NCBI GenBank assembly: GCA_019749935.1 | Contig: JAIEPD010000009.1 | Location: forward strand, 1-34,238 | DNA from: Alphaproteobacteria bacterium | Lineage (GTDB): Bacteria; Pseudomonadota; Alphaproteobacteria; Paracaedibacterales; CAIULA01 | Reading direction: 5' to 3' | Length of the DNA stretch: 34,238 nucleotides | Shown here: positions 3,971 through 33,289 of the stretch, piece by piece | Layout of the letters: each line of letters opens with the position of its first letter | Position numbering within the stretch: position 1 is the first letter of the stretch | Notes under the pieces: model-generated | The model's input: only the letters and a program-made list of their open reading frames with translations | What the model was told of the DNA's origin: nothing | The model's database searches: none | Translations under genes and position numbers: made by a program

Positions 3971-4584
3971 TTATTTTGGCTTTATATCGTAAAAGATCTC
4001 ATTCGCAATATTAATCATCTTCTCTATCTCATCATGAGGAGCTTTCAGAGATGTTTTTGTTTTTTCTGATTGGCGTTCCCATGCGGCAAACCAGTCATCC
4101 TCAACATCTAGAAGACCGCCTTGCCCACCAAAAGAAGATCCACGCTTTAAACACATTTTTAAAAGAGATACAAGCTTATAACTTTTATCAACAAAATCGT
4201 TATTTCCTCTAGCTGCAATTTCCTTTAAACAATTTCCACTAATTTTTCCTAAAGCAGTCTGAATTTCAGGATCATCTAGCAGACTCGGAGCTGATGCAGA
4301 TGAAAAATACCTTACCCCATTCGGAGCAGAAACTTGTTCTGGTAAAGAAGAAAAAATAGGAACACTATGACGAGGAACAGATGACATTAGCCTTCTAGAA
4401 TCAAAGGTAGGCGCACGTAACAAATCATCAGAGATTACAGAACCATAATACCTCGTCCCAATAGTCTGCATTAGTCTAAAGGACTTCAAGACTCTTCCAA
4501 CCACTCCAAATAGCTCACATCTTGCCTTAGCTTCTTCTATTGCAAAAAAACTTATGATTAATGCGAGAATCGTTTTTTATGCAT
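3971..4584 (-). CDS. Secreted protein of unknown family, frame broken after start codon
   Basis: I do not recognise the family. The uninterrupted reading frame runs from a GTG at 4504 (177 codons), but that GTG has no proper ribosome binding site. The same frame stays open further upstream and encodes TILALIISFFAIEEAKA, a convincing signal-peptide core. Just before it, a GGAAAG ribosome binding site precedes an ATG at 4584 reading M-H-K-K in another frame. A run of six A residues (plus-strand T at 4573-4578) lies at the junction. One more A would join the two frames into MHKKTILALIISFF..., a typical signal peptide. The mature part is Arg/Ser-rich at first, then a hydrophilic helical region ending near EIFYDIKPK. 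The gene is either newly frameshifted, slippage-controlled, or affected by a sequence error. It is followed by tRNA-Thr and preceded by the tamA-like gene on the same strand. Confidence 0.55.
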
Positions 4585-7634: not shown

Positions 7635-8393
7635 ATGATGTCGCAAGAAAATATTACAGATGGTTTTTCCCAAGATTATTTGCTGGGTGGAAAAGTTCTT
7701 ATAAAGCAGCCAACGCAGGGCTATCGGGTGGCAATTGACCCTATATTCTTGGCAGCATCAATTGATGTTCACCCAGGAGATGCTATCTTGGATATTGGGG
7801 CTGGCGTTGGCGCTGCATCTTTGTGCCTTGCAACGCGCGTTCCTTATGTCAAAGTGACAGGGGTTGAATTACAGCGTGATTATGTCAGGTGTGCCGCTGA
7901 AAATGTTAAGCTCAATAATTTAAGAGATCGTGTTGAGATTTTGCATGGCGATCTTTTGCGCCCGCCGCCAAGGCTTGCGGCTGGGACGTTTTCTCATGTT
8001 ATGACCAACCCTCCTTATTTGGATGCAACGCGAAATAATATCTCGCCGTATGAAAATAAAGCTATGGCAAATTTAGAAGGAGAAGCAAGTCTTGATCAAT
8101 GGGCTAAATTTTGCCTTTTAATGGTAAAGCCAAAGGGCAGCATTACGTTTATTCACAGATCCGATCGCCTCGATCAAATTTTATCCTTTTTTTCAAACAA
8201 ACTTGGCAATATTACGATATATCCCTTATGGCCCGGTAAAAATAAGCCAGCAAAACGTGTTCTGATAAGGGGGATAAAAAACACTCATGGCGCGCTTCGT
8301 TTGTTACCAGGTATGGTTTTACATAACGATGATGGAAGATATACTGCTGAGGCTGAAGGCGTTTTAAGAGACGCAAGCGCAATTGTGATGTAG
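7635..8393 (+). CDS. TrmN6-like tRNA1(Val) A37 N6-methyltransferase
   Basis: A class I SAM-dependent N6-adenine methyltransferase of the YfiC/TrmN6 group. Over 252 residues it shows the group's opening (YLLGGKVLIKQPTQGYRVAIDPIFLAAS), the SAM-binding motif ILDIGAGVGAASLCLA at about 51-66, the acidic GVELQ near 76-80, and the catalytic NPPY at residues 125-128 that marks N6-adenine or glutamine methylation. The E. coli homologue modifies A37 of tRNA1(Val); the substrate here is inferred. ATG is preceded by an A-rich leader with little ribosome-binding sequence. A perfect 8-bp palindrome (8422-8442) lies just downstream but lacks a T-run. Confidence 0.85.
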   Translation: MMSQENITDGFSQDYLLGGKVLIKQPTQGYRVAIDPIFLAASIDVHPGDAILDIGAGVGAASLCLATRVPYVKVTGVELQRDYVRCAAENVKLNNLRDRVEILHGDLLRPPPRLAAGTFSHVMTNPPYLDATRNNISPYENKAMANLEGEASLDQWAKFCLLMVKPKGSITFIHRSDRLDQILSFFSNKLGNITIYPLWPGKNKPAKRVLIRGIKNTHGALRLLPGMVLHNDDGRYTAEAEGVLRDASAIVM

Positions 8394-9322: not shown

Positions 9323-10117
9323 TTACTTTTTTGTTCCAAAAAAGTAGGTGAATTGACTTAATGGAAGAAGGCCTCCTCCAAAATCAACAGTACCAGTATT
9401 CAAGTTAATTTGGCTATCTGTTGCACCCGTTTCTGCCTTAAAAGCATCAAGCTGATCTTCTGTAATTCCTAATCTGGCTAAATCATCTGCTCTGGAACTA
9501 GCACTTCTGCTACTGCCCCCCAGATAAGAGCCTGCATACGGCAGGGAAACAGTAACACCAACGGTTCCAATGATCCCAGACTCTTCTAATCTTGCAGCTG
9601 TTTGCTGCCTTGAAACTTCGCGCATCTCTTCAATAAAATCTAAGCCGCCACCGGGTATTCGCGCTCTTGTTTTTGCTGCAATCTCCCGGCCTACTTTATC
9701 AATTTCACTGGCAGACAGTCCCAAAAAACCTTGCTTTGTATCAAACATAAAGTCATCAAAATGGAGCATTCCTCCCGGTAATCCAGATATACCTGAAATG
9801 AATAAGTCTAGGTTATTTTCTGCATAAGCTTCGATTAAAAAGGAAAAAAGCCCTTTAACCCCATAGAATAGTTCTTTCGTAGGGAGTGATGTAAAATCAT
9901 CAGGATTTATGCGAACGAAAGATGGCACAAGGTTTGAGTTAAAATTTAAGATTTTTGCTGTTCCAGTATCATTATCTATAAGACCAAGAGCATTCGCAGC
10001 AGCTTTACGTTTGATATCTTTAGGTAAGTCACTAAGATCCCCAACAGATGCCATACTAGCATTAGCTAAAATAGCCAACACCAAAGCAGCTAATATATTT
10101 TTTGAACCCTGTTTCAT
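9323..10117 (-). CDS. Secreted protein of unknown family (cluster member 1)
   Basis: No known family recognised. The ATG at 10117 is chosen because GGAGGGG lies four bases upstream; the alternative GTG at 10129 overlaps that site. The 264-residue product starts with a clear signal peptide (KQGSKNILAALVLAILANASMA, cleavage likely before SVGDL). The mature protein is acidic to neutral with helical stretches, a Gly/Ser-rich segment (SYLGGSSRSASSR) near residue 210 and a C-terminal FTYFFGTKK. It has its own terminator and appears monocistronic. The N-terminal part may be distantly related to the two secreted proteins upstream (similar cleavage site, ALGL/NLGL region), but it lacks their C-terminal coiled-coil-like domain; that relation is weak. 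Confidence 0.75.
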   Translation of the reverse strand: MKQGSKNILAALVLAILANASMASVGDLSDLPKDIKRKAAANALGLIDNDTGTAKILNFNSNLVPSFVRINPDDFTSLPTKELFYGVKGLFSFLIEAYAENNLDLFISGISGLPGGMLHFDDFMFDTKQGFLGLSASEIDKVGREIAAKTRARIPGGGLDFIEEMREVSRQQTAARLEESGIIGTVGVTVSLPYAGSYLGGSSRSASSRADDLARLGITEDQLDAFKAETGATDSQINLNTGTVDFGGGLLPLSQFTYFFGTKK

Positions 10118-10487
10118 TGTCCCCTCCACAAAATCTAAAATATCGCAATATTCTAAATTTGATTAAATATTCTTTAGTTTACAATAGAGCTCTGCACATC
10201 ACAAGGTATGAAAAGTACATAATCATTTTAGGTCAGTTTTGCTAGATTATTCTTTCCAATCCGATTTTCAATCCCAGCTAAAGGCTACAAAATCTAAGGC
10301 CGTAAATAGAGTTTTCATTGAATATAGTCTGAGGTCTTTTATTTGATAGAGAAGATGAAATTTCTAACTAAAGCAGAAAAGAGTAAATATAGAATAGAAT
10401 TAGAGGTTTTAGATAACTAGCGATTGATATGTTTACAAATTTTATATAAATAAAGATTTTTGAATTGATATAAATATTTTGCTCCAT

Positions 10488-10580
10488 GCACTTCAAAATA
10501 CCTGAATGACCACGCAACTTCGTCGCTCGCCATAACAAAATAGATTACGTGATCGCGGGGGGAGCCTGGCAATCCAGAAA
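10488..10580 (+). repeat. Degenerate dispersed intergenic repeat
   Basis: The stretch contains ATACCTGAATGACCACGCAA, then CTTCGTCGCTCGCCAT, and ends with a segment containing GGCAATCCAG. Close relatives are the reverse strand of about 12564-12605 and a weaker one at 9177-9210. These look like members of one repeat family that sits in gaps between genes. Confidence 0.5.
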
Positions 10581-10612
10581 ACAAGTATCTTCATTTTCAT
10601 TGGCTATATACA

Positions 10613-10646
10613 AAAAACCCCTCTTTTTTTCAGAAGAGGGGTTTTT
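10613..10646 (-). terminator. Intrinsic terminator of the secreted-protein gene at 10683
   Basis: A 13-bp perfect stem AAAAACCCCTCTT/AAGAGGGGTTTTT (10613-10625 with 10634-10646, 8-base loop) lies 37 bases past the stop codon, with the T-rich side downstream on the minus strand. Confidence 0.9.
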
Positions 10647-10682
10647 CATTCATATAATTTTTACATTATATTTAGTAGAAAG

Positions 10683-11930
10683 TTACAGTCCAAATGTTTT
10701 CACTGCATCAGCAATACTAAAACCAGTACCTACATCAGTATCGAATGTACCTTTATCAAAATCAAAATTTCTTGGATTTTCATGTGCTAGCGCAGCTGTA
10801 ATGCCATTCGCAATTCTTGAATGATCTGATGTTGGGGTTGAGGGGCGAGAAGGAATGTGACCGCCGCCGCCTATAGCCCCGCTGCTGCCAGCCTTAGCAT
10901 CAGCTAATTCTTGCTTCAATTGAGCTATCTGAGTGATGAAACCTCTTGCTTGTTTTGAAGCAGCCACTAAAAGAGCCACGATTTGCTTTGCTTCAGCTTT
11001 GCCTGCGTGAGCAGTTGTTGCATCATCAAAATTAAGTCCTTTTGCTTCTGGTAATGCTTTAAGAGCAGCGAATTGACCACCTTCAAATGCTTCATTCAAC
11101 GCTTGGTAGAAATCGATAGCAACTTGTTGATCAGGAGTAATTTTTACTAAACCAGCTACTGCATCATTTTTTACTTTACGAACTTCTGGAGTTGTCCAGT
11201 CAGCCTTTGCTTCAAATGCAAGAACTTCAGCAACAGTTTTGTCACCAGCTTTTGTTGTAACTTTCATAGCTTTAAGCTCAGCTAATGCTTCCTTAGCAGC
11301 ATCTAGATCTTTTGCATCCTTTGATGTTGCATAAGCTTTTTTAGCTCCAGCATAGGCATCAATTGCGTCTTGGATTGTGTGGTATTTAGTACCACCCTTT
11401 GCAGCCATGCCTGCAACCTTAGCTTTATCCAACTTTAATGCACTTTCGTCAAAACCTTTGAATGGATCATCAACAACAGCGGCTTTCAAAGTTGCTCTTG
11501 CTTTAGTGTTTACTGCCTGGTCCCACTTACCAGCTACTTCTGTTAAATCAAGATTAAAGGTAGCAGTTAAAGGAGATGTTAATTTACCTAATTGTGTTTT
11601 CAATTCAGCCGCACCACCACCTGCTGATGCATAAAGATCAGCGTAAATCGCTTTTAAAGCATCCATCAAATGCTCTACTTGACCACCGCTTCCTGTAAAG
11701 CGTTTACCGTTTGGCATAGCTTCTAATGAATCAACAAGGTCTGGATGAATTGTAACATTATAATTTATGTCGTCAGTGGTTGCTACTTTCACAGCAGCCA
11801 ATGCTGTGCCAATCTTAGCTTTATCAGCAATTGTAGCAGCATCGTTAACATCGATAGGCGCTGCCATGCTTGCTGCAGAAATCGCTGTTGACAGCAATGC
11901 AGCTGCCGTAACTTTCGTAAATAACTTCAT
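10683..11930 (-). CDS. Secreted Ala-rich protein, paralogue of the 12729 product
   Basis: Unrecognised family. The ATG at 11930 is supported by GGAGG six bases upstream; an in-frame ATG at 11984 has no such site. The 415-residue product has a signal peptide (KLFTKVTAAALLSTAISAASMA, cleavage before APIDV). The mature protein is rich in Ala, Lys and Asp and mostly helical in appearance. The region TPDQQVAIDFYQALNEAF...FAALKALPEAKGLNF...QARGFITQIAQLKQELADAK aligns along its length with the product of 12729-13943, ending in a likely short coiled coil, then a Gly/Pro/Ser linker and a distinct C-terminal tail (GFSIADAVKTFGL). It has its own strong terminator. The sequence suggests an exported periplasmic or surface protein, but function is unknown. 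Confidence 0.8.
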   Translation of the reverse strand: MKLFTKVTAAALLSTAISAASMAAPIDVNDAATIADKAKIGTALAAVKVATTDDINYNVTIHPDLVDSLEAMPNGKRFTGSGGQVEHLMDALKAIYADLYASAGGGAAELKTQLGKLTSPLTATFNLDLTEVAGKWDQAVNTKARATLKAAVVDDPFKGFDESALKLDKAKVAGMAAKGGTKYHTIQDAIDAYAGAKKAYATSKDAKDLDAAKEALAELKAMKVTTKAGDKTVAEVLAFEAKADWTTPEVRKVKNDAVAGLVKITPDQQVAIDFYQALNEAFEGGQFAALKALPEAKGLNFDDATTAHAGKAEAKQIVALLVAASKQARGFITQIAQLKQELADAKAGSSGAIGGGGHIPSRPSTPTSDHSRIANGITAALAHENPRNFDFDKGTFDTDVGTGFSIADAVKTFGL

Positions 11931-12124
11931 TATTTCCTCCAAAATTTTAATCACATTGTTAATGACGATCACATTGATCATCATCTTTACAATTTTAATA
12001 TTAGTATCTCATAGTTAACAAAACGTTAAAAAACACTCTTCATCCCGAATATTTTTTTCCGATAGTTTTCTATAGCAGAAACTATGGTTAGCTACAAGAA
12101 ATAATTCACCCTTTGAAAGGCATC

Positions 12125-12198
12125 TGGAGGCCAGGACCGGAATCGAACCGACGTACAAGGATTTGCAATCCTCTGCATAACCACTCTGCCACCCGGCC
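12125..12198 (-). tRNA. tRNA-Cys (anticodon GCA)
   Basis: The reverse complement folds fully: acceptor GGCCGGG/CCTGGCC with one G-U pair, anticodon stem GAGGA/TCCTT around loop TTGCAAA (anticodon GCA), T-arm with GGTTCGATTCC, discriminator U73 typical of tRNA-Cys, and encoded CCA. It lies between the two paralogous secreted-protein genes on the same strand. Confidence 0.95.
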
Positions 12199-12269
12199 TT
12201 AATACTTTCCAAAAAACAAATCAAGTTTTGTAACAAACCGATACTCACCATATAAGCACATAATACCAT

Positions 12270-12630
12270 TTGGTCAAGAGCATCCGTTAAAATTTTTTGA
12301 AATTATGCGCAATATTGTTGTAAATTGTGCCTTATTTGCCCCTGTTTTTTATTCTTGGAAGATGATTATTGTCATTCAGGGATTTAGATGAGCAAACATC
12401 TTTAGACGTTTTGTGAATCTTAAGACCCGGAATCTTAGGCCAATTTGTTAATCAACTCATAAAGATCCCGGATGCCAAGCCTCATAAACGCACCTAAAGT
12501 GCGATTCGACTAATCTCCGGGATGACATTGCAAAATTAAACAGTCTGTCGAATGATAACAACCTATGTTGAACAACGAAGTTGTGTGGCCATCCAGAAAT
12601 ACTCTGGATCACCGCGATAAAGAGCTTACC
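12270..12630. other. Gene-free stretch with nested palindromes
   Basis: No coding region is supported. ATCCCGGA (12465-12472) pairs with TCCGGGAT (12516-12523) and encloses a second hairpin CGCAC/GTGCG (12489-12493 with 12499-12503). On the minus strand, about 12564-12605 holds a good copy of the intergenic repeat found at 10488 (CCAGAGTATTTCTGGATGG, then CCACACAACTTCGTTG). CCGGGATGAC-type palindromes of this kind are common dispersed elements in alphaproteobacterial genomes. Confidence 0.55.
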
Positions 12631-12637
12631 TTTAAAA

Positions 12638-12663
12638 AAAAGCAGCCCTTAAGGACTGCTTTT
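12638..12663 (-). terminator. Intrinsic terminator of the secreted-protein gene at 12729
   Basis: Stem AAAAGCAG/CTGCTTTT (12638-12645 with 12656-12663) has further C-G pairs inside, with a long A-run on the plus-strand left side that becomes a T-run after the stem on the minus strand. It lies about 66 bases past the stop codon. Confidence 0.85.
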
Positions 12664-12728
12664 ATCATCTGACGATTTTATTTTTCAGAACTACACAACA
12701 CTACGGATGCGCAGATCTGCAAGCTATT

Positions 12729-13943
12729 TTAGTCGTCCACATCGTCAAATATACCCATCTTTTCTGCATCATCTTTGCTGTCGCTGGAATCGCCGCCAGT
12801 AGGCTTTCTTGAACCAGATTCACTATCTACTTTTTTCCTAACAGCCTCTGCAATAGCTAAAGCTGCTGCATCTTGTGCATCAATAATTTGTTGCCTTATA
12901 ATACTGATTTCTGTTATTAACGCCCTTTGCTGTTTTGCAGAGGCTATAAGAGCCTTTAATAATTGATTTGATTGAGACGCAGTTCTCAATGAATCAACAT
13001 CTGAGAAATCGAGCGCAGAAGCCTCTGGCAGTGTCTTAAGAGCCGCCAATCTTCCTGCATCGATTTCCGTCAAAAAGGCCTCAAAAAAATCAACAGCCAC
13101 CTGACCCTCAGGCGTTAAACCTCCTCCTTTGGAAGCCTTAGCTTTTGCCTTATCTCTCTTTGCACGCATTTCAGCCGTAGTATAAGTCGCTTTCTCTTTA
13201 TCAGCTAAATACTCGAGAGTACGATCGCCTCTCGGGCCAAACCTTAAAGCATCAGCTTGAGTCAAGGCAAGTCTTGCCGCTACATAAGCTCTGGTCTCAT
13301 CCGTAGCTCTTAATGCTAATGCCTGAGCATAGGCATCATAAGCCGCTTGCGCGTTATCATATTTATCTTTCCCCACAGTAGCAGGCCTTTTAGCGCCAAC
13401 TGTGCCATTTAACTCATTCAATAATTCAGCGGTTTTTCTACTCTCAAGCAAATCCCATTTAACTTTGTTTGCTAAGGTTCCCTGCACTGCTGCATTATCA
13501 GAAGCTAGAGTTTCCTTGACACCGTAGTTTGCAAAACTAAGGGTTATTTTTCTGTCAGACTCAGCAGCAGTGCCTAACCACAAACGTGCAGCTGCCTTAG
13601 GATCTGACCTACCACTACCATGAGCAGCAGCAGCCTCCAAAGCAGTATAAATGTCTTTTACTAATGCAACAGCATTTTGAGCTAAGGGTAATTTTGAACC
13701 CTTATTGTCAATCTTTTCAATGTTTGAAAATTGGACAGCTTCAACTTTTAGAAGCTTATTATAGACCGTCGTACTTAACGTAAGCTCATAACTATCATCT
13801 ACAGTATGAACCAGACCCAGGTTTCGTGCCACATCTGCGAACTTTCCCTTCTTACCACCAAGATCATCATAATCATCTGCCATTACATTTGTTCCGGTGA
13901 CAGCAAACAGCATCACCACTAAAAAATACCGAATAAAATTCAT
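12729..13943 (-). CDS. Secreted Ala-rich protein, paralogue of the 10683 product
   Basis: Unrecognised family. The ATG at 13943 has GGAGGAAG just upstream; an upstream in-frame start at 13988 is less likely. The 404-residue product has a signal peptide (NFIRYFLVVMLFAVTGTNVMA, cleavage before DDYDD). Its middle and C-terminal parts match the 10683 product: YTTAEMRAKRD versus WTTPEVRKVKN, then TPEGQVAVDFFEAFLTEID...LAALKTLPEASALDF and KQQRALITEISIIRQQIIDAQ. Unlike its paralogue it ends in an acidic low-complexity tail (SDSKDDAEK...FDDVDD). Composition is Ala/Lys/Asp-rich and helical. It is divergent from the rhodanese gene, with a 227-base gap, and has its own terminator. Probably a periplasmic or exposed protein; function unknown. 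Confidence 0.8.
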   Translation of the reverse strand: MNFIRYFLVVMLFAVTGTNVMADDYDDLGGKKGKFADVARNLGLVHTVDDSYELTLSTTVYNKLLKVEAVQFSNIEKIDNKGSKLPLAQNAVALVKDIYTALEAAAAHGSGRSDPKAAARLWLGTAAESDRKITLSFANYGVKETLASDNAAVQGTLANKVKWDLLESRKTAELLNELNGTVGAKRPATVGKDKYDNAQAAYDAYAQALALRATDETRAYVAARLALTQADALRFGPRGDRTLEYLADKEKATYTTAEMRAKRDKAKAKASKGGGLTPEGQVAVDFFEAFLTEIDAGRLAALKTLPEASALDFSDVDSLRTASQSNQLLKALIASAKQQRALITEISIIRQQIIDAQDAAALAIAEAVRKKVDSESGSRKPTGGDSSDSKDDAEKMGIFDDVDD

Positions 13944-14170: not shown

Positions 14171-14518
14171 TTGTTAAATTTTATATCATTGATGGATTTG
14201 CCTCACATTGTTTCGGTACTTGATGTAAAGGGTTTATTTGACTCAAAGGCAGATTTTTGCTTAATTGACGTGCGCCAAGATTGGGAATTTGAGCTTTGCC
14301 ATATAGAAAATAGCCTTCATTTACCCCTGGATCAATTGGCTGAAAAGCTTCATGAAATTCCAACGGATAAGCCTCTATATACTTTATGTCACCATGGAAT
14401 CCGAAGCGGGCATGCCGCTATACTGTTAAAGAATGCTGGATTTAAAGACGTTTCTAATATAAAAGGGGGAATCGATGCTTGGGCAAAAGAAATAGACTCC
14501 ACCTTAAAAACTTATTAA
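14171..14518 (+). CDS. Single-domain rhodanese-like sulfurtransferase
   Basis: A compact rhodanese fold of about 110 residues. It contains FCLIDVRQDWEFELCHIENSLHLPL near residues 29-53 and the active-site loop CHHGIRSGHAA with catalytic Cys73, the CHHGxRS form seen in GlpE-like and many alphaproteobacterial single-domain proteins. Such enzymes move sulfane sulfur between carriers in the cytoplasm; the acceptor is unknown. The start is uncertain: a TTG at 14171 has AAAGG a few bases upstream, while the ATG at 14192 lacks a ribosome binding site. It precedes tolC by 15 bases, so the two are probably co-transcribed, an order seen in other alphaproteobacteria. Confidence 0.85.
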   Translation: MLNFISLMDLPHIVSVLDVKGLFDSKADFCLIDVRQDWEFELCHIENSLHLPLDQLAEKLHEIPTDKPLYTLCHHGIRSGHAAILLKNAGFKDVSNIKGGIDAWAKEIDSTLKTY

Positions 14519-14533
14519 TTTAAAGGATCATCG

Positions 14534-16063
14534 ATGCGCTATTTGTTACTTATGACTGTTGCCTCTTCGCTCTTTTTACAGACCTCCTTAGCTGAATCTC
14601 TTGCCCCCCAAAAACAAGAGTCCGCCCCTAAAGAAGAATCTGTCACCCTTGACACGGAAACAACAGAACCATCAAAGGCTTTGACGATTGAAACCACTGA
14701 AAATCACGTCAAAGTTTCCAATGAATCACATACCCTTGTTGCAGCCATGATTGGGGCTTATAAAAACAACCCTGATCTGCAACAAAAGCGCCATGCTGTT
14801 CTAGCAACGCACGAGCAATACGTGCAAGCAACAGCCGGTTGGCGCCCTAATATCACAATGGGTGGCAGCATCACAGGAAATGCCAAAAATGTGTCTGGAA
14901 ATTCAAAAGACGGAGACGCAGGTCCATTTCCTAGCGCATCAGGAAGCAGCGCAAATACCCGCGAAGGAAACTTACAATTAACGCAGAACTTATATAATGG
15001 TGGAGCGACAACAGCTGATATCAGTAAAGCCGATCAAAGTGCCAGATCTGCTTGGGCAGGATTACAGTCCGCCGAGCAAAACGTTTTATTTTCTGCAGTG
15101 AAGGCCTTTTTAGATCTATTGTCACAATATTCGCAAGTCGAACTTTATAAAGCAAACAAAGTCGCTTTGCAAAAAAGCTATGAAGCTGCTGTTGAAAAAA
15201 GAAACATCGGTGAAGAAACTCAAACCCAAGTTGCCAATGCGGAAGCTAAATTAGCCGACGCAGAAGCCCAGCTTTTAACAGCAGAAGCACAATTAGAAGG
15301 ACTGAAAGCAACCTATAGTCAAATCACAGGCCTTCAACCCGCATCACAGATGCAAAAACCAGAGCCAAGCTTAAGCCTGTTACCTGCTGACCTTAAAAGC
15401 GCGGTTCAATTAGCAAAAGATCAACATCCCGATGTTATCGCGGCACAGTTTGACCATTTAGTAGCGCAATCAGAAACGCAGCGTATTGGAGGAGCCTTAC
15501 TACCATCTGTTAACGTAACGGCCACCTCAAGCCGCAACGAATCGAGAAGCAGTACATCTTATCTATCGTCAGATCATGACTATCGTTCAAAGGATTATTA
15601 CACAGATAACAGAGTGGTACTTGAAGTTAAGGTTCCCTTGTATGAAGGCGGATCCGTTCGTTCACAAAAAAGGCAGGCGCATGAAACGGCAGTGTCAAAA
15701 CGCGTTGCTATCGAAACAGCTAGAACTCAGGTTATCCAAGCAGCCATTCAAGCGTGGCAAAATTTCCAAGCAGCTAAAAACAATATCGAAAACTATCAAA
15801 AGCAAGTTAAGGCCAGCCAGGTCAGTCTAGAGGGAACGCAACAAGAAATGATGGTTGGAACCAAGATATTGCTAGACGTTTTAAATGCTCAGGCAGCCCT
15901 TTTAGAAGCACAGCTTAAGCTGGTTCAAGCAGAGCAAGCTTATGCCTTGGAATCATTCCGTTTGATGGCCGCAGTTGGTTTATTAAATGCAAGGCACCTG
16001 AAGTTACAGGTTGATTATTTCAACCCAGAAACCCATTATCATATTACAAGTGGGAAATTCTAA
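14534..16063 (+). CDS. tolC: TolC-family outer-membrane efflux protein
   Basis: TolC proteins form trimeric outer-membrane channels for type I secretion and drug efflux. The 509-residue protein has a signal peptide (RYLLLMTVASSLFLQTSLA), an unusual Glu/Thr/Lys-rich N-terminal extension to about residue 65, then two OEP repeats with the helical pattern typical of the family: LTQNLYNGG near 155, the long Ala/Glu-rich helix NAEAKLADAEAQLLTAEAQL near 235, and the second repeat LEVKVPLYEGGSVRSQKRQA near 365-390. AAAGGA lies upstream of the ATG. Its partner transporter and adaptor are not in the window. It is followed after two bases plus a short leader by popZ. Confidence 0.93.
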   Translation: MRYLLLMTVASSLFLQTSLAESLAPQKQESAPKEESVTLDTETTEPSKALTIETTENHVKVSNESHTLVAAMIGAYKNNPDLQQKRHAVLATHEQYVQATAGWRPNITMGGSITGNAKNVSGNSKDGDAGPFPSASGSSANTREGNLQLTQNLYNGGATTADISKADQSARSAWAGLQSAEQNVLFSAVKAFLDLLSQYSQVELYKANKVALQKSYEAAVEKRNIGEETQTQVANAEAKLADAEAQLLTAEAQLEGLKATYSQITGLQPASQMQKPEPSLSLLPADLKSAVQLAKDQHPDVIAAQFDHLVAQSETQRIGGALLPSVNVTATSSRNESRSSTSYLSSDHDYRSKDYYTDNRVVLEVKVPLYEGGSVRSQKRQAHETAVSKRVAIETARTQVIQAAIQAWQNFQAAKNNIENYQKQVKASQVSLEGTQQEMMVGTKILLDVLNAQAALLEAQLKLVQAEQAYALESFRLMAAVGLLNARHLKLQVDYFNPETHYHITSGKF

Positions 16064-19284: not shown

Positions 19285-19531
19285 ATGTTTAATATGTCAG
19301 AGAATAAAATCAACTTTACGAAAGCTATTTTAGATACTTTGCCACTTCCTCGTCAAGGCCAACGGACGGTCTACCATGATAAAAAGACGAATGGTCTACA
19401 GATTCGTGTTACGAGTGCTGGTGTAAAAACCTTCTGTCTATATCGACGCATTAAAAATGGTAGTCCTGAACGTGTAACCCTAGGACGGTATCCTGATATG
19501 TCTATTGAACAAGCCCGTAATGAAAGTATAA
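19285..19531 (+). pseudogene. P4-type tyrosine integrase, N-terminal fragment
   Basis: The reading frame encodes the N-terminal arm-binding domain of P4-like integrases: LPLPRQGQRTVYHDKKTNGLQ, IRVTSAGVKTFCLYRRIKNG, SPERVTLGRYPDMSIEQAR. The normal protein has about 400 residues with a C-terminal R-H-R-Y catalytic domain; here the homology stops after about 83 residues, where an IS3-family element begins. The open frame runs on a few codons into the IS. No catalytic half was found on the other side. It faces away from the tRNA-Arg fragment, as integrases usually do. An ATG at 19294 is an alternative start. Confidence 0.85.
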
Positions 19532-19603
19532 TGGTCCCAGAAAACTGGACAGAAAAATGGCACTAAGTGAGATATAATTCTCTGGCTTAGATAGGAGCTA
19601 GAG

Positions 19604-19900
19604 ATGAGCAAAAAAGCAAGAGAATACAGTTCAGAAGAAAAAGCGAAGGTTGCGCTAGAAGCCCTAAAGGGTGACCTGACCATGGCGCAAATTAGCAGTA
19701 AATATGGGGTTCACGCGACTCAAATCAATCGGTGGCGTAAAGAGGCTTTAGAATCGATGGTCTCTGGGTTTAAATCAAAATCGAAGGCCAAGGATACCAG
19801 CCAAGAGGAGTTAATCAAGCAGCTTTATGAACAAATAGGTCAATTAACAGTAGAGAGGGACTGGCTCAAAAAAAAATCTACTCTCTTTGGCAAAAGATAA
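19604..19900 (+). CDS. IS3-family transposase OrfA
   Basis: A 98-residue helix-turn-helix protein: YSSEEKAKVALEALKGDLTMAQISSKYGVHATQINRWRKEAL at about 8-49, then a leucine-zipper-like C-terminus (EELIKQLYEQIGQLTVERDWLKKK). OrfA binds the IS ends. AGGAG precedes the ATG. The 3' end carries nine consecutive A residues (19868-19876), and the frame overlaps orfB by 14 bases, as is usual for IS3 elements that make a fused OrfAB. Confidence 0.92.
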   Translation: MSKKAREYSSEEKAKVALEALKGDLTMAQISSKYGVHATQINRWRKEALESMVSGFKSKSKAKDTSQEELIKQLYEQIGQLTVERDWLKKKSTLFGKR

Positions 19901-20822
19901 AAGAGGATTAATTGACAAAGAACACAAGAGGCTGAGTATAAAGAGGCAATGTGAGCTTTTGGGGTTAAATCGATCCAGTTATTATTTTAAACCCAAAGGT
20001 TTCAGCGTTGAAGATTATGCGATCATGAGGCGGATGGATGAAATTTTTACAGAACACCCCTATTATGGCACAAGACGTATGAAGGCTATTTTGGAAAAGG
20101 AAGGTTATACAATTGGGCGCAAGCGGATTAGCCGTTACTATCAGATTTTGGGGATAGAAACGATTTATCCCAAGATGAATTTAAGTAGGCGTAATCAGGC
20201 TCATAAGGTTTACGCGTATTTGTTGAAAGGGTTAGAAATTCAAAAACCGAATCAGGTTTGGAGCGCAGATATAACTTTTATTAGGCTAAGGCAAGGATTT
20301 GTATACTTGGTTGCCATTATCGATTGGTACAGTCGTTACGTTCTGAGTTGGAGGGTATCGATTAGTTTGAGCAGTGACTTTTGTGTGGATGCTTTAGAGG
20401 AGGCTTTATCTCTGTATGGTAACCCTGACATTTTTAACACGGATCAAGGTGTTCAGTTTACCTCTCAAGCCTTTGTATTGGTTTTAGAGGCAAGGAAAAT
20501 TTCCATCAGTATGGATGGAAAAGGAAGAGCTTTAGACAATGTTTTTATTGAACGGTTTTGGCGTTCTTTGAAGCAGGAAAAAATTTATAGAATTGAGCTT
20601 GATACTGTAATGGAGGCAAAGCAAGCGGTGAAAGAATATATGGATTTTTACAACAATCGAAGGCCTCATCAGGCTTTGGATTATCGAGTGCCAAGAGAAA
20701 TCCATTTTCAAGGGTCCAAGCCTGTTGAAATGATGGATAAGTCTAACGACTTACCCACAGTTCAACAAGCACAACCACCACATAACTTAATTTTAACAAG
20801 GGAGGATTATATCTCAAATTAA
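19887..20822 (+). CDS. IS3-family transposase OrfB (DDE)
   Basis: A 311-residue integrase-core protein. An N-terminal KRQCELLGLNRSSYYFKP is followed by HTH_21 (HPYYGTRRMKAILEKEGY) and the DDE catalytic core: Asp in WSADITFI, Asp in NTDQGVQFTS and Glu in DNVFIERFWRSLKQEKIY, ending with YNNRRPHQALDYRVP. The first in-frame start is a TTG; normal expression would be as an OrfAB fusion. The frame is offset +1 from orfA, whereas IS3 elements usually need a -1 shift, so the nine-A tract matters for whether this copy is active. The coding region is otherwise intact. Confidence 0.92.
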   Translation: MAKDKRGLIDKEHKRLSIKRQCELLGLNRSSYYFKPKGFSVEDYAIMRRMDEIFTEHPYYGTRRMKAILEKEGYTIGRKRISRYYQILGIETIYPKMNLSRRNQAHKVYAYLLKGLEIQKPNQVWSADITFIRLRQGFVYLVAIIDWYSRYVLSWRVSISLSSDFCVDALEEALSLYGNPDIFNTDQGVQFTSQAFVLVLEARKISISMDGKGRALDNVFIERFWRSLKQEKIYRIELDTVMEAKQAVKEYMDFYNNRRPHQALDYRVPREIHFQGSKPVEMMDKSNDLPTVQQAQPPHNLILTREDYISN

Positions 20823-21126
20823 GCTAAAAAATTGTCTAGACAAACGGGGCCACCTCATCAGGTATAGAAAATCTGTATTTGTATTACGGAATACCTTGCT
20901 GATGATTTTTATGATGATACGGCTTATAGCACGGAAGAAGATAACCTAAATTATTCAAAAACCATGTTTCTTCCTTAAAAAATGACACAACAAAATTAAG
21001 AATTCAACCTCATGAAAAACATATCTTTTTTGTTGTTCAAAAAGAAAAAATGTGGCTATTTGCCAGAACCATTGAACTCAAAAAGGGCAAAAGTCAAAAT
21101 AGAGCCATAGCAAATATCACCTACAA

Positions 21127-22100
21127 ACCCGAGTTATGGATTAAATTTTAGTTAAAATTGAGGGGTGAACTGGCTAAATTGAAATTGTTTAAAAAGCAAT
21201 TTAGGAGCCAGTTCATGAAGCAAGATATCACGGAATTATTTTATTGTGTTGATGAATTTACAGAAGGTAGGGAGAAAGAGATAAGAACCCATCAACTCTC
21301 TTCGCAGTCAAGTTGCTCTTTGCCGACAAGAGTACCAGGACTTTCTATGGGGGAAATCATAACAATTATCTTAATGTTTCCGTATTCTCCTTGTCGTAAT
21401 TTTAAATATTTTTATAAATCCTATATGGTTCTTTACCGGGAAGAATTTCCTCTTATGCCCAGTTATGAACGTTTTATAAGTTTAATGCCAAGAGCGCTTA
21501 TTTTTTTGGCTCTTTTGCTTTATTCCTTATTCACTCCTGGAAAAGGAATAGGATTTATCGATGCAACTTCTTTAGCTGTTTGCCATCCGAAAAGAATCTC
21601 GAGAAATAAAGTATTCAAAGGACTTGCTGCGCTTGGTAAAACAACAAAGGGTTGGTTCTTTGGATTCAAACTTCACGTCATTGTTGATGATAAAGGAAAC
21701 TTAATAAAAGCTAAACTTACGAAAGGAAACGTTGATGATAGGCATGTTGTTTCAGAAATGACGGAAGGACTAATAGGGCTTCTTTTTGGGGATAAAGGCT
21801 ATATTGATAAAGATCTGTTTTTAAAGCTTTATAGAAGAGATCTTAAGTTAGTAACAGGGCTCAAGAAAAACATGAAAAATAAGTTAATGATTTGGCATGA
21901 AAAAATCCTTTTGCGCAAACGCTCTTTGATTGAAACTGTCTTTGACTATTTAAAAAACAAACTACAACTTGAGCATACTAGACACAGATCTCCCTTTAAT
22001 ATGCTTGTCCATGTGATCTCAACTCTTATAGTCTATCAATTAAAATCTTCAAAGCCCGCTATCTCTCAAAATTACGCCCTACCTAATCCATAACTCGGGT
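21127..22100 (+). mobile_element. IS982-family insertion sequence, complete
   Basis: Perfect 17-bp terminal inverted repeats ACCCGAGTTATGGATTA (21127-21143) and its complement (22084-22100) bound a 974-bp element. A direct 5-bp repeat TACAA flanks it (21122-21126 and 22101-22105). The ACCC ends are those expected for IS982. The intact ends, target repeat and full-length transposase suggest a fairly recent insertion. Confidence 0.93.
21215..22093 (+). CDS. IS982-family transposase
   Basis: The ATG at 21215 is preceded by AGGAG; an upstream TTG at 21158 is less likely. The 292-residue product has the IS982 pattern: SMGEIITIILMFPYSPCRNFKYFY in the N-terminal half, then a DDE core with FIDATSLAVCHPKRI, KVFKGLAALGKTTKGWFFGFKLH, LFGDKGYIDKDLF and the C-terminal LLRKRSLIETVFDYLKNKLQLEHTRHRS. 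All blocks are present in one frame, so the enzyme is probably functional. Confidence 0.94.
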   Translation: MKQDITELFYCVDEFTEGREKEIRTHQLSSQSSCSLPTRVPGLSMGEIITIILMFPYSPCRNFKYFYKSYMVLYREEFPLMPSYERFISLMPRALIFLALLLYSLFTPGKGIGFIDATSLAVCHPKRISRNKVFKGLAALGKTTKGWFFGFKLHVIVDDKGNLIKAKLTKGNVDDRHVVSEMTEGLIGLLFGDKGYIDKDLFLKLYRRDLKLVTGLKKNMKNKLMIWHEKILLRKRSLIETVFDYLKNKLQLEHTRHRSPFNMLVHVISTLIVYQLKSSKPAISQNYALPNP

Positions 22101-27776: not shown

Positions 27777-28053
27777 TCAATATTCTAAAGTTGTTTTGTT
27801 TAAGGCCTTTAATAGATTAAAAACCATCACTTTTAAGGCTATTTGCCCCTGAACTTTTGAATCCGCGGTTAAAGTAAGAAGCTCTAGAAAAATTGAATCA
27901 GCGTTTTTTAAGGTACTCAAACATTGCTCCACACGATAACGAACCTTTGAAGCCATCTGGTTAAATGTCTTCTGCCAATGCGTTAACCGGTTTATTTTTC
28001 TTGGCTTTTTCCATGAGTCCATTCTTGATTTCTTTTTCGTTTAAGATATCTCT

Positions 28054-29097
28054 GTTCTTTGTTGAACTATAGTCCTTATTTGTGAGATTCACAGAGATGG
28101 TTTCAACATTTTAGGGGAAGAGGCTGTCTGGTAATTATGAGGGATGATAGTTTCTTTTTTAGGATCAAAAATTTTATCTATGTCGTCCCATAAGGGGGTT
28201 TTGTCTAAAAGTTCTATATGTTTTTCTTGTGGTGTTTTTCCATTAAGAGAGCTATGAGGTCTATGCCAGTTATAGTAAAACTCCCAATCAGACAGTAATT
28301 CTTCCAAATTAGGATCCTTAATATCTACAGCTGAATAAAATTCATCCAAGTCTGTTCGTTGAGATCTTTCTACTTTGCCATTGAGGTGAGGAGAAGCAGG
28401 CCTAACAGGTCGGAACTTAATCCCCCATTCTAAAAGCTTTTCTTGGACTTCATAGGCCATAAACTCTTGGCCTCTATCTGTTTGGATTCGTTGAATAGGA
28501 AAAGGTAGACGGTAAAACACTTGATTTTCTATAAAATCTAAAGTGTTTTTGGCTGTGCGTCTTTTATAAAGAGCTATGACCTTGTAGCGAGTGCAATCAT
28601 CAATAGCTGTATATTGATAAAGTCTATTGGCAATTTTACAAACATCCATTTGTACTCTTTGACCAGGAAGTTTGCAATTATACCGCTTAGCTTGCTTGCG
28701 ATAGTTTCGCTTCTTTTGTAAATAAGGAAGCTGATGCTTCTTTAGAATCTTATGAATTGTTGCTAGAGATAGAGAAAGCTCATGATGGCGTTTAAGTTCA
28801 CTCTGAATGCGCCTAACTCCTAATTTACGCTCTTGACGCAAACTAAGAATAATCAATTCTTGTTCAGAAAAGATCTTTCTAGAAGGGCTATTGATAGGTT
28901 TACGGCTATAATCCTCTAAACCATCCAGCCCCTTTTCTTCATACCGTTTTAACCATTTACGTAAAATAGAACGAGAGATACCACAGCGCCTACATACTTT
29001 TCCAGCATCCCCTATCTCTTGATAGAGTTCAATCCACCCTAAACGTGTCTTTACATGCTTGCATAAACACGTTCTAGCATACTGTTTTGTTTGAAAC
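28054..29097 (-). mobile_element. IS481-like element inserted in the IS5 transposase
   Basis: A 7-bp direct repeat TATCTCT (28047-28053 and 29098-29104) flanks the segment, and the IS5 protein resumes on the other side. Terminal similarity is poor (both ends start GTT on the outside), so exact limits are tentative. The element is about 1.04 kb with a single transposase. Confidence 0.55.
28089..29080 (-). CDS. IS481-like transposase, start unclear
   Basis: The clear frame from 28856 down carries an integrase core: Asp in QMDVCKIANRLYQYTAIDD, Asp in IQTDRGQEFM and Glu in PHLNGKVERSQRTDLDEFY, ending WEFYYNWHRPHSSLNGKTPQEKH. The same frame continues upstream to about 29056 and encodes the expected helix-turn-helix (WIELYQEIGDAGKVCRRCG, ISRSILRKWLKRYEEKGLDGL), so the real protein is longer than the 255 residues from the TTG at 28856. 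I find no start codon in frame upstream. An ATG at 29080 opens a nearby frame that ends after nine codons, suggesting a one-base frameshift near the start. It may be inactive. Confidence 0.7.
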
Positions 29098-29944: not shown

Positions 29945-31678
29945 TTATTTCTGCACAATGATTTTATCATTAAAAATCAGAGTATCAAGTTGAGAACCAT
30001 AAAAAGCGTTCAGTGCATCCTGTGGTGTTCTGCAAATTGGAAGGCTCCGAACATTAAAGGATGTATTAATTAAAATAGGGATACCATTTCTTTCATTGTA
30101 TTTTTTGAGGAGAGCTAACAACATAGGATCACCATTGGGGGGGACAATTTGAATCCTACAGGTTTTATCAACGTGAACTAAAGAAGAAATTTTATTTTCC
30201 CATTTCGATTTTACACGATAAACAAATGACATATAAGGAGCTTCAATATGTTCATTTTCAAAATCAAATAAGTTTGTCACATCCTCACTTCGTATAAAGC
30301 CTCCATATGGTCTAAAATACTCTCTGTATTTTACATTTTTATTGAGATGATCAAGCATTCCTTTAACGCTTGGATCTGCAATTATGCTTCTATGACATAG
30401 TGCCCTCGGACCTCCCTCCATTTGTTTTCTAAAAACGGCTATTACCCTTTCTTTGGATAATTCATTTACCATAAAATCTACTATATTATCCTCTACTTTA
30501 TAATTAATTTTATTGTTATCTAGAATCTTGATAATTTCTTCATTGTGAAATTCCTCCCCAAGAAAAGCTGTTTCAGTATATTCAGGTAGTGATTTATATA
30601 ATTTTCGATGTAGGGAAACAGCCGCTCCAATACTACAGCCAGCATCGTGAGGTATTGGGGGAACAACAAATTTAATTGATGGATATTTACAACTTAATAT
30701 ACCGTTAGCAACACTATTTTGTGCAACACCACCGGTAAGAATTATAGATGATGAAAATTGAGATAAATATTTAACTTGATGATCAAGGATCTTCTCTGTG
30801 ATTTTTTGTAAACCATAAGCTATATCAAAATGATGCTGATTAAGCTCTTCATCATTATCTCTTGGGTTACCAAATCTTTCATAAAAACTATTAGTTAATC
30901 TTTGCTCTTTTCCTGGCTTAAAAGATCTATCTATAATAAAATTTTTATTAATTTTAAATCCACCCTTTTCTTTAAAAATAATATTTTTTTCAAAGTATTC
31001 TAAATATTTATCAGTTCCAAAACTTGCAAGAGCCATGACTTTACCTTCTCCATCTACTCTTTTGTAACCAAGAAACTCTGTCACAGCCCCATATAAATAA
31101 CCAATAGAATGGGGATCATTTTGTGTTAATAAAATTTTGGGTTTTGTCTCAGAATTAGATAAATTAAATACCATTCCTAAAGTAGAAATACCTTCCCCCA
31201 TGCTATCATTTGACAAGACCACACCATTCTTTAACTCCGAAGCATATATACCATACCAAGCATGACATTCGTGATGAGTCATAAAATGGACCTTAACATT
31301 TCTTTTGTCGAATAATCTTTCAATAGAAGAAGAAACACTAAAATAAAAGTTTGTAAGCCAAAGCGCTTCATAAAAAAAACGTTTTCTTTTAAATACTTCA
31401 AAATTATAAAGAATAGCTAATGGATTATTTTTTATAAGGTACTGAATTAAGCATTTTTTCATATTAAAATAAAAGGCAATATCTGTAATATCATCTTTTT
31501 TTAGTTCTGCAGCATTTAAACAATATTCAATAGCTTTTAAAGGAAATTTACTCGTGTGTTTATCATAGTTAAATCTTTCTTCTTCTGCAAATGCAACTAA
31601 TTTATTTTTATTTATAATACAGGCAGAGGCATCATGATTAAAACACACAATCCCGAGTATAGTTCTCTGCTTGCTCAT
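29945..31678 (-). CDS. NodU/CmcH/TobZ-family O-carbamoyltransferase
   Basis: These enzymes use carbamoyl phosphate and ATP to form carbamoyl-adenylate and transfer the carbamoyl group to a hydroxyl of a sugar or natural product. The 577-residue protein shows the two-domain plan. The N-terminal Kae1-like domain has GIVCFNHDASACII at the start, EEERFN, metal-ligand HHECHAWYG, SNDSMGEG, GEGKVMALASFG, LTGGVAQNSVANG and PHDAGCSIGAA. The C-terminal YrdC-like domain has EGGPRALCHRSIIADP, KYREYFRPYGG and NTSFNVRSLPICRTPQDALNAF. The usual GPRALGHRS has Cys in place of Gly. GAAGGA lies upstream of the ATG. It is on the same strand as carAB 3.6 kb away, with only IS debris between. The acceptor is unknown. 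Confidence 0.9.
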   Translation of the reverse strand: MSKQRTILGIVCFNHDASACIINKNKLVAFAEEERFNYDKHTSKFPLKAIEYCLNAAELKKDDITDIAFYFNMKKCLIQYLIKNNPLAILYNFEVFKRKRFFYEALWLTNFYFSVSSSIERLFDKRNVKVHFMTHHECHAWYGIYASELKNGVVLSNDSMGEGISTLGMVFNLSNSETKPKILLTQNDPHSIGYLYGAVTEFLGYKRVDGEGKVMALASFGTDKYLEYFEKNIIFKEKGGFKINKNFIIDRSFKPGKEQRLTNSFYERFGNPRDNDEELNQHHFDIAYGLQKITEKILDHQVKYLSQFSSSIILTGGVAQNSVANGILSCKYPSIKFVVPPIPHDAGCSIGAAVSLHRKLYKSLPEYTETAFLGEEFHNEEIIKILDNNKINYKVEDNIVDFMVNELSKERVIAVFRKQMEGGPRALCHRSIIADPSVKGMLDHLNKNVKYREYFRPYGGFIRSEDVTNLFDFENEHIEAPYMSFVYRVKSKWENKISSLVHVDKTCRIQIVPPNGDPMLLALLKKYNERNGIPILINTSFNVRSLPICRTPQDALNAFYGSQLDTLIFNDKIIVQK

Positions 31679-32890: not shown

Positions 32891-33289
32891 GTGCTTATAT
32901 TCAACAGATTTTTGGTGTTTTTTATCCTTATCCTTATGTTTATTTACAAAGTTTGCAACGCGGATACTTCAAAAATTATTTTAGAAGACGATGGCAACAA
33001 TGTCTTGCTACGGACGTCTCTTTCTCCCTCAAAAAAACTACCAGAAGATTCTGCAATAAAAATATTCGAAAAACAGAGTAGAAGATTTTATGAATATTAT
33101 TTAACGCAAGTGACAAGTATAAGACGTCTATCGAAGATAGGAGTCGCTTTTACTGGAAGGAATAACTGTCCAAAAACTCTACAGGATCTAGAGAATGAGC
33201 TCGAAGAAGAGGCTAAGAAAAATCTAGATTGGACACATGATATAATGGACCCAGAAATAAGAGCCTTTGCTAGAAGTGGGTGGCTTTAA
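32891..33289 (+). CDS. Small secreted or anchored protein, unknown family
   Basis: The 132-residue product starts with GTG, with GAAAGGA upstream. Residues about 5-24 (NRFLVFFILILMFIYKVCNA) are a signal peptide with likely cleavage after CNA; uncleaved anchoring is possible. The mature part is hydrophilic and charged: IKIFEKQSRRFYEYYLTQV, then a helical acidic stretch LQDLENELEEEAKKNLDW and C-terminal AFARSGWL. I recognise no family. It is the only apparently intact non-IS gene right of the carbamoyltransferase, and could be an exported protein of the symbiont. No operon partner is visible. Confidence 0.65.
   Translation: MLIFNRFLVFFILILMFIYKVCNADTSKIILEDDGNNVLLRTSLSPSKKLPEDSAIKIFEKQSRRFYEYYLTQVTSIRRLSKIGVAFTGRNNCPKTLQDLENELEEEAKKNLDWTHDIMDPEIRAFARSGWL

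What the first reader, a model, noticed from the sequence alone, without database searches (positions are those of the whole stretch)
9323..13943. Paralogous secreted proteins arrayed around tRNA-Cys
The products of 10683-11930 and 12729-13943 share an ordered series of motifs (TTxExRxxK, TPxxQVAxDFxxA, FAALK/LAALKxLPEA, KQxRxxITxI) and similar signal peptides ending in MA, but have entirely different C-terminal tails (Gly/Pro/Ser linker versus acidic Asp/Ser tail). The gene at 9323 has the same setting, a strong GGAGG-type site, a signal peptide and its own terminator, and may share the N-terminal part. This looks like a small, fast-evolving exported family without a recognised domain.
Basis: partly seen in the sequence, partly recalled or inferred. 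Interest (0 to 1): 0.55.

Follow-up and report, generated by a model that had tools for sequence, protein, structure and literature searches.

The report
Fast-evolving exported protein family array
Three neighbouring genes encode exported proteins of a previously undescribed, very fast-changing family with a shared front part and swappable ends, probably tools that this bacterium uses at its interface with a host cell, although their function is untested.

Summary
The products of 10683-11930 and 12729-13943 are paralogs (37% over 135 aa, E 9e-20); 9323-10117 shares the N-terminal part (profile E 1e-5). The genome holds three more members. The array recurs around tRNA-Cys in one congener; deeply diverged members lie beside the same flanking genes in another congener and, on the right side, in a second genus. 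Most members have a ~130-residue N-domain (AlphaFold pLDDT 91.5, pTM 0.88; no fold match found), followed by interchangeable C-terminal modules. Counterparts are 26-69% identical between species, neighbouring genes 85-97%. No curated family matched. Correction: the two tails are not private; the acidic tail recurs as acidic-[MVIGS]-[LI]F motif in 7 of 24 members and 0 of 288 sampled genes. Best reading: Sec-exported, lineage-specific host-interface proteins (candidate effectors); function and release are inferred. Most novel open reading: the acidic tail imitates the C-terminal peptide of the eukaryotic ribosomal P-stalk (post hoc).

The parts
9323..10117 (-). W3: exported protein, 264 aa: signal peptide, divergent N-domain, C-terminal tail module (TGTVDF...PLSQF)
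   Evidence: N-domain profile E 9.9e-6; tail profile also hits two places of congener G002
9326..9493 (-). tail module of W3, shared with G002:C4:4232-4378 (in R3a) and G002:C4:6083-6259 (out of frame after R3b)
10618..10638 (-). terminator-like stem-loop after W1
10683..11930 (-). W1: exported protein, 415 aa: signal peptide, N-domain, C-domain, Gly/Ser/Pro linker, tail
10887..11405 (-). C-domain of W1 (aa 176-348), predicted helical at low confidence, ends in a long helix
11463..11858 (-). N-domain of W1 (aa 25-156), confidently predicted fold
11859..11930 (-). signal peptide of W1 (aa 1-24), by inspection
   Evidence: not called by the crude script
11936..11940 (-). GGAGG ribosome-binding site of W1
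12125..12198 (-). tRNA-Cys (GCA) between W1 and W2; in G002 a tRNA-Cys lies between their counterparts
12729..13943 (-). W2: exported protein, 404 aa: signal peptide, divergent N-terminal part, C-domain, acidic tail
12732..12776 (-). acidic tail motif of W2 (KDDAEKMGIFDDVDD), of the kind found in R2p, X2, Y6, Z1, Z2, W96
12867..13385 (-). C-domain of W2 (aa 187-359)
7635..8393 (+). left flank of the array: methyltransferase, beside family members also in G001 and G002
14171..16063 (+). right flank of the array: rhodanese and TolC-type outer-membrane efflux genes, beside family members also in G001, G002 and G006

Best explanation
The three genes belong to one lineage-specific family of Sec-exported, modular proteins. 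Shown: common descent of W1 and W2 and, over the N-terminal part, of W1 and W3; a conserved chromosomal slot; separate gene units, in the window each with its own ribosome-binding site and stem-loop; rapid protein divergence; presence or absence of a member at another locus; an N-terminal part joined to different C-terminal modules (helical C-domain with acidic tail, TGTVxF tail, or a His-rich CxPCG tail). Inferred: the proteins cross the inner membrane by Sec, lose the signal peptide, and act outside the cytoplasm at the interface with a eukaryotic host, released from the periplasm or shown on the surface. The N-domain would be the common delivery or docking part and the C-terminal module would carry the partner-specific contact. 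Divergence would be driven by the host partner.
For: Paralogy. Further members in the same genome: C66, C46 and C96. Synteny with G002: methyltransferase - two W3-slot genes - W1 counterpart - tRNA-Cys - W2 counterpart (3' part) on one contig, its 5' part beside rhodanese on another. Same slot in G001, and the right flank in G006, with members so diverged that only profiles link them: C-domain hhalign E 3.7e-8, score 58.9 against at most 18.0 in 100 column shuffles. Fast evolution: W1/R1 dN 0.50, dS 1.04, against dN 0.020-0.089, dS 0.56-0.85 for seven neighbouring genes. Presence/absence: R48 lies between a LuxR gene and a penicillin-binding-protein-like gene (named by eye) in G002, while the same two genes are 28 bp apart in G000. 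N-domain prediction pLDDT 91.5, pTM 0.88. LuxR-type regulators with autoinducer-binding domain lie upstream of two members. Precedent: a periplasmic protein of Holospora is secreted into the host nucleus (PMC9866348, abstract).
Against: No experiment and no homolog of known function. No outer-membrane release route was identified, and I did not test for one. The host association of this genome is inferred, not shown. Mean dN/dS is below 1 for each of the four pairs, so relaxed constraint without host-driven selection also fits. The N-domain link between the G000/G002 branch and the G001/G006 branch is not significant without the signal peptide (hhalign E 0.11); with it E is 3.7e-8, but that comparison had no shuffle control and includes the signal peptides. 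W2 is not found by the N-domain profiles.
Confidence: 0.5

Rival explanations
1. Periplasmic or envelope proteins with a bacterial role (structural filler, chaperone-like or metal-buffering), diverging fast because constraint on sequence is low.
For: Signal peptides by eye; Ala/Lys-rich helical C-domain with low-confidence prediction; His-rich tail in the C66 member and its counterpart; dN/dS below 1.
Against: The N-domain is well predicted and keeps invariant positions; the acidic tail motif is found in 7 of 24 members across four genomes while the rest diverges; presence/absence of a member is unusual for envelope housekeeping.
Confidence: 0.3
2. Surface antigens under diversifying selection, exposed on the outer membrane and recognised by hosts, predators or phages.
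For: Paralog arrays, fast divergence, presence/absence; signal peptides by eye.
Against: No lipoprotein cysteine or membrane anchor seen by eye in W1-W3; no sign of gene conversion among the three window copies: the repeat scan gave only pairs of 22-33 bases at 73-83%.
Confidence: 0.15
3. A mobile-element or phage cargo family.
For: Single genes present at varied loci; a tRNA gene inside the array.
Against: No relative in viral contigs (profiles A4 and A3), in phages (W2 only) or in plasmids (W1 only); flanks are housekeeping genes in the same order in the window and two congeners; PHROGs gives nothing below E 0.028.
Confidence: 0.05

Closest known systems
Secreted periplasmic proteins of Holospora (63-kDa PRP1, 89-kDa protein)
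   Same: Exported proteins of alphaproteobacterial protist symbionts; PRP1 is reported to be secreted into the host macronucleus (PMC9866348, abstract); the 89-kDa protein is in a Holospora-specific group (PMC5911502, passages).
   Different: No sequence comparison was made here. PRP1 is reported to have a DNA-binding domain; these proteins match no domain. Of 102 Holospora-specific groups, 97 contain no paralogs (PMC5911502, passage), whereas this family is an array.
Lineage-specific expanded secreted effector families of host-associated microbes (general kind, recalled)
   Same: Signal peptide, shared N-terminal part, variable C-terminal modules, clustered paralogs, rapid divergence.
   Different: No effector function, delivery system or host target is shown here.
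[quoted passage not shown]
   Same: Acidic run, then hydrophobic residues with F near the very C-terminus; the G002 tail ending SDEDAMGLFGLDD scores 35 against a best of 20 among 288 other C-termini of this genome.
   Different: Spacing differs, three of the seven tails have GMPLF or GVPLF, W96 does not exceed background, and the proteins showed no relation to P-proteins (one search gave no PDB match for the W2 tail).

Membership tests
This new family (N-domain and/or C-domain exported proteins) | N-domain by profile A2 or A4 | tested here: met
   W1 by construction; W3 E 9.9e-6. W2 is not reported by these searches; its N-terminal part has only weak pairwise matches (W46 E 0.002)
This new family (N-domain and/or C-domain exported proteins) | C-domain by profile A3 or A10 | tested here: met
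   W1 and W2, both part of the profiles; independent pairwise E 9e-20; W3 is not hit
This new family (N-domain and/or C-domain exported proteins) | cleavable signal peptide | tested here: inconclusive
   clear by inspection; no dedicated predictor available; crude script called W2 and W3 but not W1, 14 of 26 entries in all
Pfam, NCBIfam and PADLOC families | score above the curated cut-off (PADLOC: E up to 0.1) | tested here: not met
   best Pfam hit DUF4398 at 16.6 bits against a cut-off of 27.9; best NCBIfam hit 14.1 bits against 436
TAL effector repeats | a matched stretch that passes on its own | tested here: not met
   one search lists 22 TAL/Hax3 sequences at E 1.7e-6 to 3.4e-5 for the C-domain profile, with 0 stretches passing on their own; I read this as many copies of a repeat (its form is recalled) adding up a chance match
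Known fold of the N-domain | significant structural match | tested here: inconclusive
   Foldseek best E 4.8 in PDB, 1.2 in BFVD; VIA best Z 2.5
Host-delivered effectors | delivery into a host cell and a host target | not testable with these tools
   none
P-stalk C-terminal mimics | C-terminal peptide resembling SD[D/E]DMGFGLFD beyond background | tested here: inconclusive
   6 of 24 tails score above all 288 background C-termini; 6 to 98 of 2000 shuffles of the same tail reach them; the peptide was chosen after seeing the tails
P-stalk C-terminal mimics | binding to translation factors or other stalk partners | not testable with these tools
   none

The most novel reading that the evidence does not exclude
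Part of the family consists of host-delivered proteins whose conserved acidic C-terminal tail imitates the eukaryotic ribosomal P-stalk peptide and so engages host translation GTPases or stress-kinase machinery. My paper searches listed no bacterial example of such mimicry (2 of 2 papers listed, 15 of 44, 1 of 1; titles and abstract starts only).
Probability: 0.07. Interest if true: 0.85.

Novelty: new variant of a known kind. Interest (0 to 1): 0.52.

Why it matters
It adds a protein family, found under no curated name here, whose relatives in neighbouring species sit in the same chromosomal slot yet are nearly unrecognisable by sequence. Such behaviour is a usual signature of host-interface proteins. 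[quoted passage not shown] The confident N-domain prediction without a match, the swappable ends and the conserved tail motif give concrete handles: one domain to solve, one peptide to use as bait.

Tried and rejected
Families: Pfam, NCBIfam, PHROGs and PADLOC gave nothing above cut-off or below E 0.01 (lowest 0.011, DUF4398). PDB by sequence: N-domain profile best E 0.31, W2 tail none; the C-domain profile hit TAL/Hax3 sequences at E 1.7e-6 and weaker, rejected as summed chance matches to repeats. Viral contigs (A4, A3), plasmids (W1) and phages (W2): none. Class sample: A4 hit 2 of 385 genomes, the window's own and G043 at 23.7 bits with three stops inside, rejected as chance; A3 hit 1 of 385, the window's own. 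Whole-model fold search of W1: best Foldseek E 4.1, best VIA Z 4.3 over 51 residues. That the N-domain is a new fold is not claimed: a missing match is no proof.

The exported-looking ORF beside rhodanese in G003 scores no better than shuffles with five profiles (best BLASTP E 0.007, to X2 over its first 67 residues, signal peptide included), so it is not counted. Tail alignment A6, which tried to unite the tails of W1, R1 and R28b with those of W3, R3a and R3b, has one invariant column; I do not claim that union. Tail profile hits at E 0.01 or weaker (G000:C78, C75, G002:C101) were not accepted. In the global-mode control one of 60 C-domain shuffles scored 125.5, above the real 51.6, the next 5.7; N-domain 9.0 against at most 7.2. 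I rely on the local mode, where none of 100 C-domain shuffles reached the real score. The strict N-domain comparison (without W2, W3, R48 and the second half of R3b) scored 10.9, below the best shuffles (20.8). The first full-length comparison of the two branches gave E 0.024. Paper searches: the listed titles and abstract starts describe no such family (5 of 5 listed; 10 of 10,903; 1 of 1; 8 of 92); the contig prefix of G002 is in no held paper.
Full report
Names. W1 = window 10683-11930(-), W2 = 12729-13943(-), W3 = 9323-10117(-). W66, W46, W96 = further members of the window's genome (G000, contigs C66, C46, C96). R names = members in congener G002, X and Y names in congener G001, Z names in G006 (same family, another genus). 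Three G002 contigs have the same lengths as contigs of a metagenome-assembled genome titled 'Alphaproteobacteria bacterium'.

Observation. The stated parts are there. W1 and W2 align over 135 residues at 37% identity, E 9e-20. W3 shares only the N-terminal part with W1 (E 2e-4), and a profile built without W3 finds it at E 9.9e-6. The tRNA-Cys lies between W1 and W2.

Extent. In the same genome, W1 finds C66 (E 7e-26) and C46 (E 7e-5), and the G001 profile finds C96 (E 5e-4; W96 then matches Y3 at E 6e-33). In G002 one contig carries R2 (3' part), tRNA-Cys, R1, R3a and R3b, followed by the same methyltransferase, polyprenyl synthase, Omp85-type and later genes as in the window; the 5' part of R2 lies at the end of another contig beside rhodanese and TolC. 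R28a/R28b (two consecutive reading frames), R47 and R48 are on other contigs. R3b ends at a stop, and a W3-type tail follows out of frame.

The diverged branch. P0001 (W1) finds nothing in G001, but G001 has three other ORFs in the same slot next to the methyltransferase: X1 and X2 with signal-peptide-like starts, X3 cut by the contig end. A profile of these finds 12 places in G001 (about ten genes), 2 in G006 and 1 in G000 (3 of 42 genomes of the order). Two members, Y7 in G001 and Z1 in G006, sit beside rhodanese and TolC, as W2 does. Their C-domains are homologous to those of W1 and W2: hhalign probability 95, E 3.7e-8, score 58.9, none of 100 column shuffles above 18.0 (Y7 itself has no C-domain). 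With full-length proteins and a smaller set the same kind of test had given only E 0.024. For the N-domain without signal peptide the test is not significant (E 0.11, score 15.1, best of 100 shuffles 13.8); a stricter set scored 10.9, below its shuffles (up to 20.8). With signal peptides included the profiles align over 103 N-terminal columns at E 3.7e-8, without a shuffle control. A joint C-domain profile finds 4 of 42 genomes of the order: G000, G001, G002, G006. In a class-wide sample of 385 genomes the C-domain profile hits only the window's own genome and the N-domain profile the own genome plus one chance-like place with stops.

Evolution. Between G000 and G002, protein identity and dN are: W1/R1 47%, 0.50; W2/R2 part 40%, 0.58; W3/R3a 26%, 0.99; W66/R47 69%, 0.23. 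Seven neighbouring genes (six beside the array, one beside W66) have 85-97% and 0.020-0.089. dS is 0.70-1.98 for the family pairs and 0.56-0.85 for the neighbours, so part of the difference for W2 and W3 may be alignment error and saturation; for W1 (1.04) and W66 (0.70) dS is close to that of the neighbours. The four mean dN/dS ratios are below 1: fast, not proven adaptive. R48 of G002 lies in a 1360-bp gap between a LuxR gene and a penicillin-binding-protein-like gene (named by eye); in G000 the same genes are 28 bp apart: a clean presence/absence.

Structure. AlphaFold on W1 with 9 sequences gave a mean pLDDT of 60, with block means of 83-93 for residues 31-150. The N-domain alone with 8 sequences gave pLDDT 91.5, pTM 0.88: helix, two strands, helix, long helix, helix, strand, two helices. 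Foldseek found no match below E 1 in PDB or BFVD; VIA's best Z is 2.5. The C-domain is helical and of low confidence.

Tails. A motif of acidic residues, then [MVIGS][GP]?[LI]F near the end, is in 7 of 24 members (R28a and R3b, of 26 entries, left out because they end at internal stops), 0 of 109 other ORFs of the loci then held and 0 of 288 genes of a 320-kb sample of G000; 0 of 2000 shuffled sets reach 7. The motif was written after seeing the tails, so the family count is descriptive. Against the published P-stalk consensus (PMC3280276, abstract start in the listing) six tails (R2p, Y6, W2, X2, Z1, Z2) score above all 288 background tails, and 6 to 98 of 2000 shuffles of the same tail reach them; W96 does not stand out. 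Against the recalled SSB tail, three do (R3a, Z1, W96). I treat the stalk resemblance as a lead only. W66 and R47 instead end in a His/Asp-rich stretch with C-x-P-C-G, a possible metal site.

Regulation and expression. GGAGG sites and stem-loops with T runs suggest single-gene expression in the window. LuxR-type genes with an autoinducer-binding domain lie on the same strand upstream of R48 and of W96 (for W96 with a short ORF between); one LuxR homolog was found in the 320-kb sample, so such genes are not common, but two cases are few.

Conclusion. A lineage-restricted, modular, fast-evolving exported family under no curated name found here: well supported. Host-interface function: the likeliest reading, inferred from export, divergence, presence/absence and precedent in Holospora (PMC9866348, abstract; PMC5911502 and PMC11909080, passages). 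The review PMC11909080 names a non-standard type VI system as the most credible candidate machine of that group; I did not test it here.

Noticed in passing
L017:1730-2521 and L064:4608-5330: LuxR-type regulators with autoinducer-binding domain lie upstream, on the same strand, of family members R48 and W96; possible quorum-type control.
   Followed up: partly
L018:3653-4246 (W66) and L016:3306-3959 (R47): Members with a His/Asp-rich C-terminus and a C-x-P-C-G motif in two species: a possible metal-binding tail.
   Followed up: no
window 10567-10580 and 12586-12599: Short intergenic repeat (TGGCCATCCAGAAA) near the family genes, 2 places against 0.25 expected, though 4 of 100 shuffles also reach 2; similar stretches are seen by eye downstream of genes in G002.
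   Followed up: partly
window 29945-31678: Carbamoyltransferase with Pfam N- and C-terminal domains, between transposase-like ORFs (by eye).
   Followed up: no
window 3971-4504 and 32891-33289: Two further short ORFs without a Pfam match; the second starts with a signal-peptide-like stretch by eye.
   Followed up: no
window 19285-22093 and 27777-28856: Transposase-like ORFs (by eye); the one at 21158 matches IS982 transposases, first listed hit a Megaera plasmid at 48% identity; the short ORF at 19285 looks like an integrase N-terminus (by eye).
   Followed up: partly
L074:1279-1830 (G003): Another Ala-rich ORF with a signal-peptide-like start beside rhodanese, not detectably related to the family.
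   Followed up: yes
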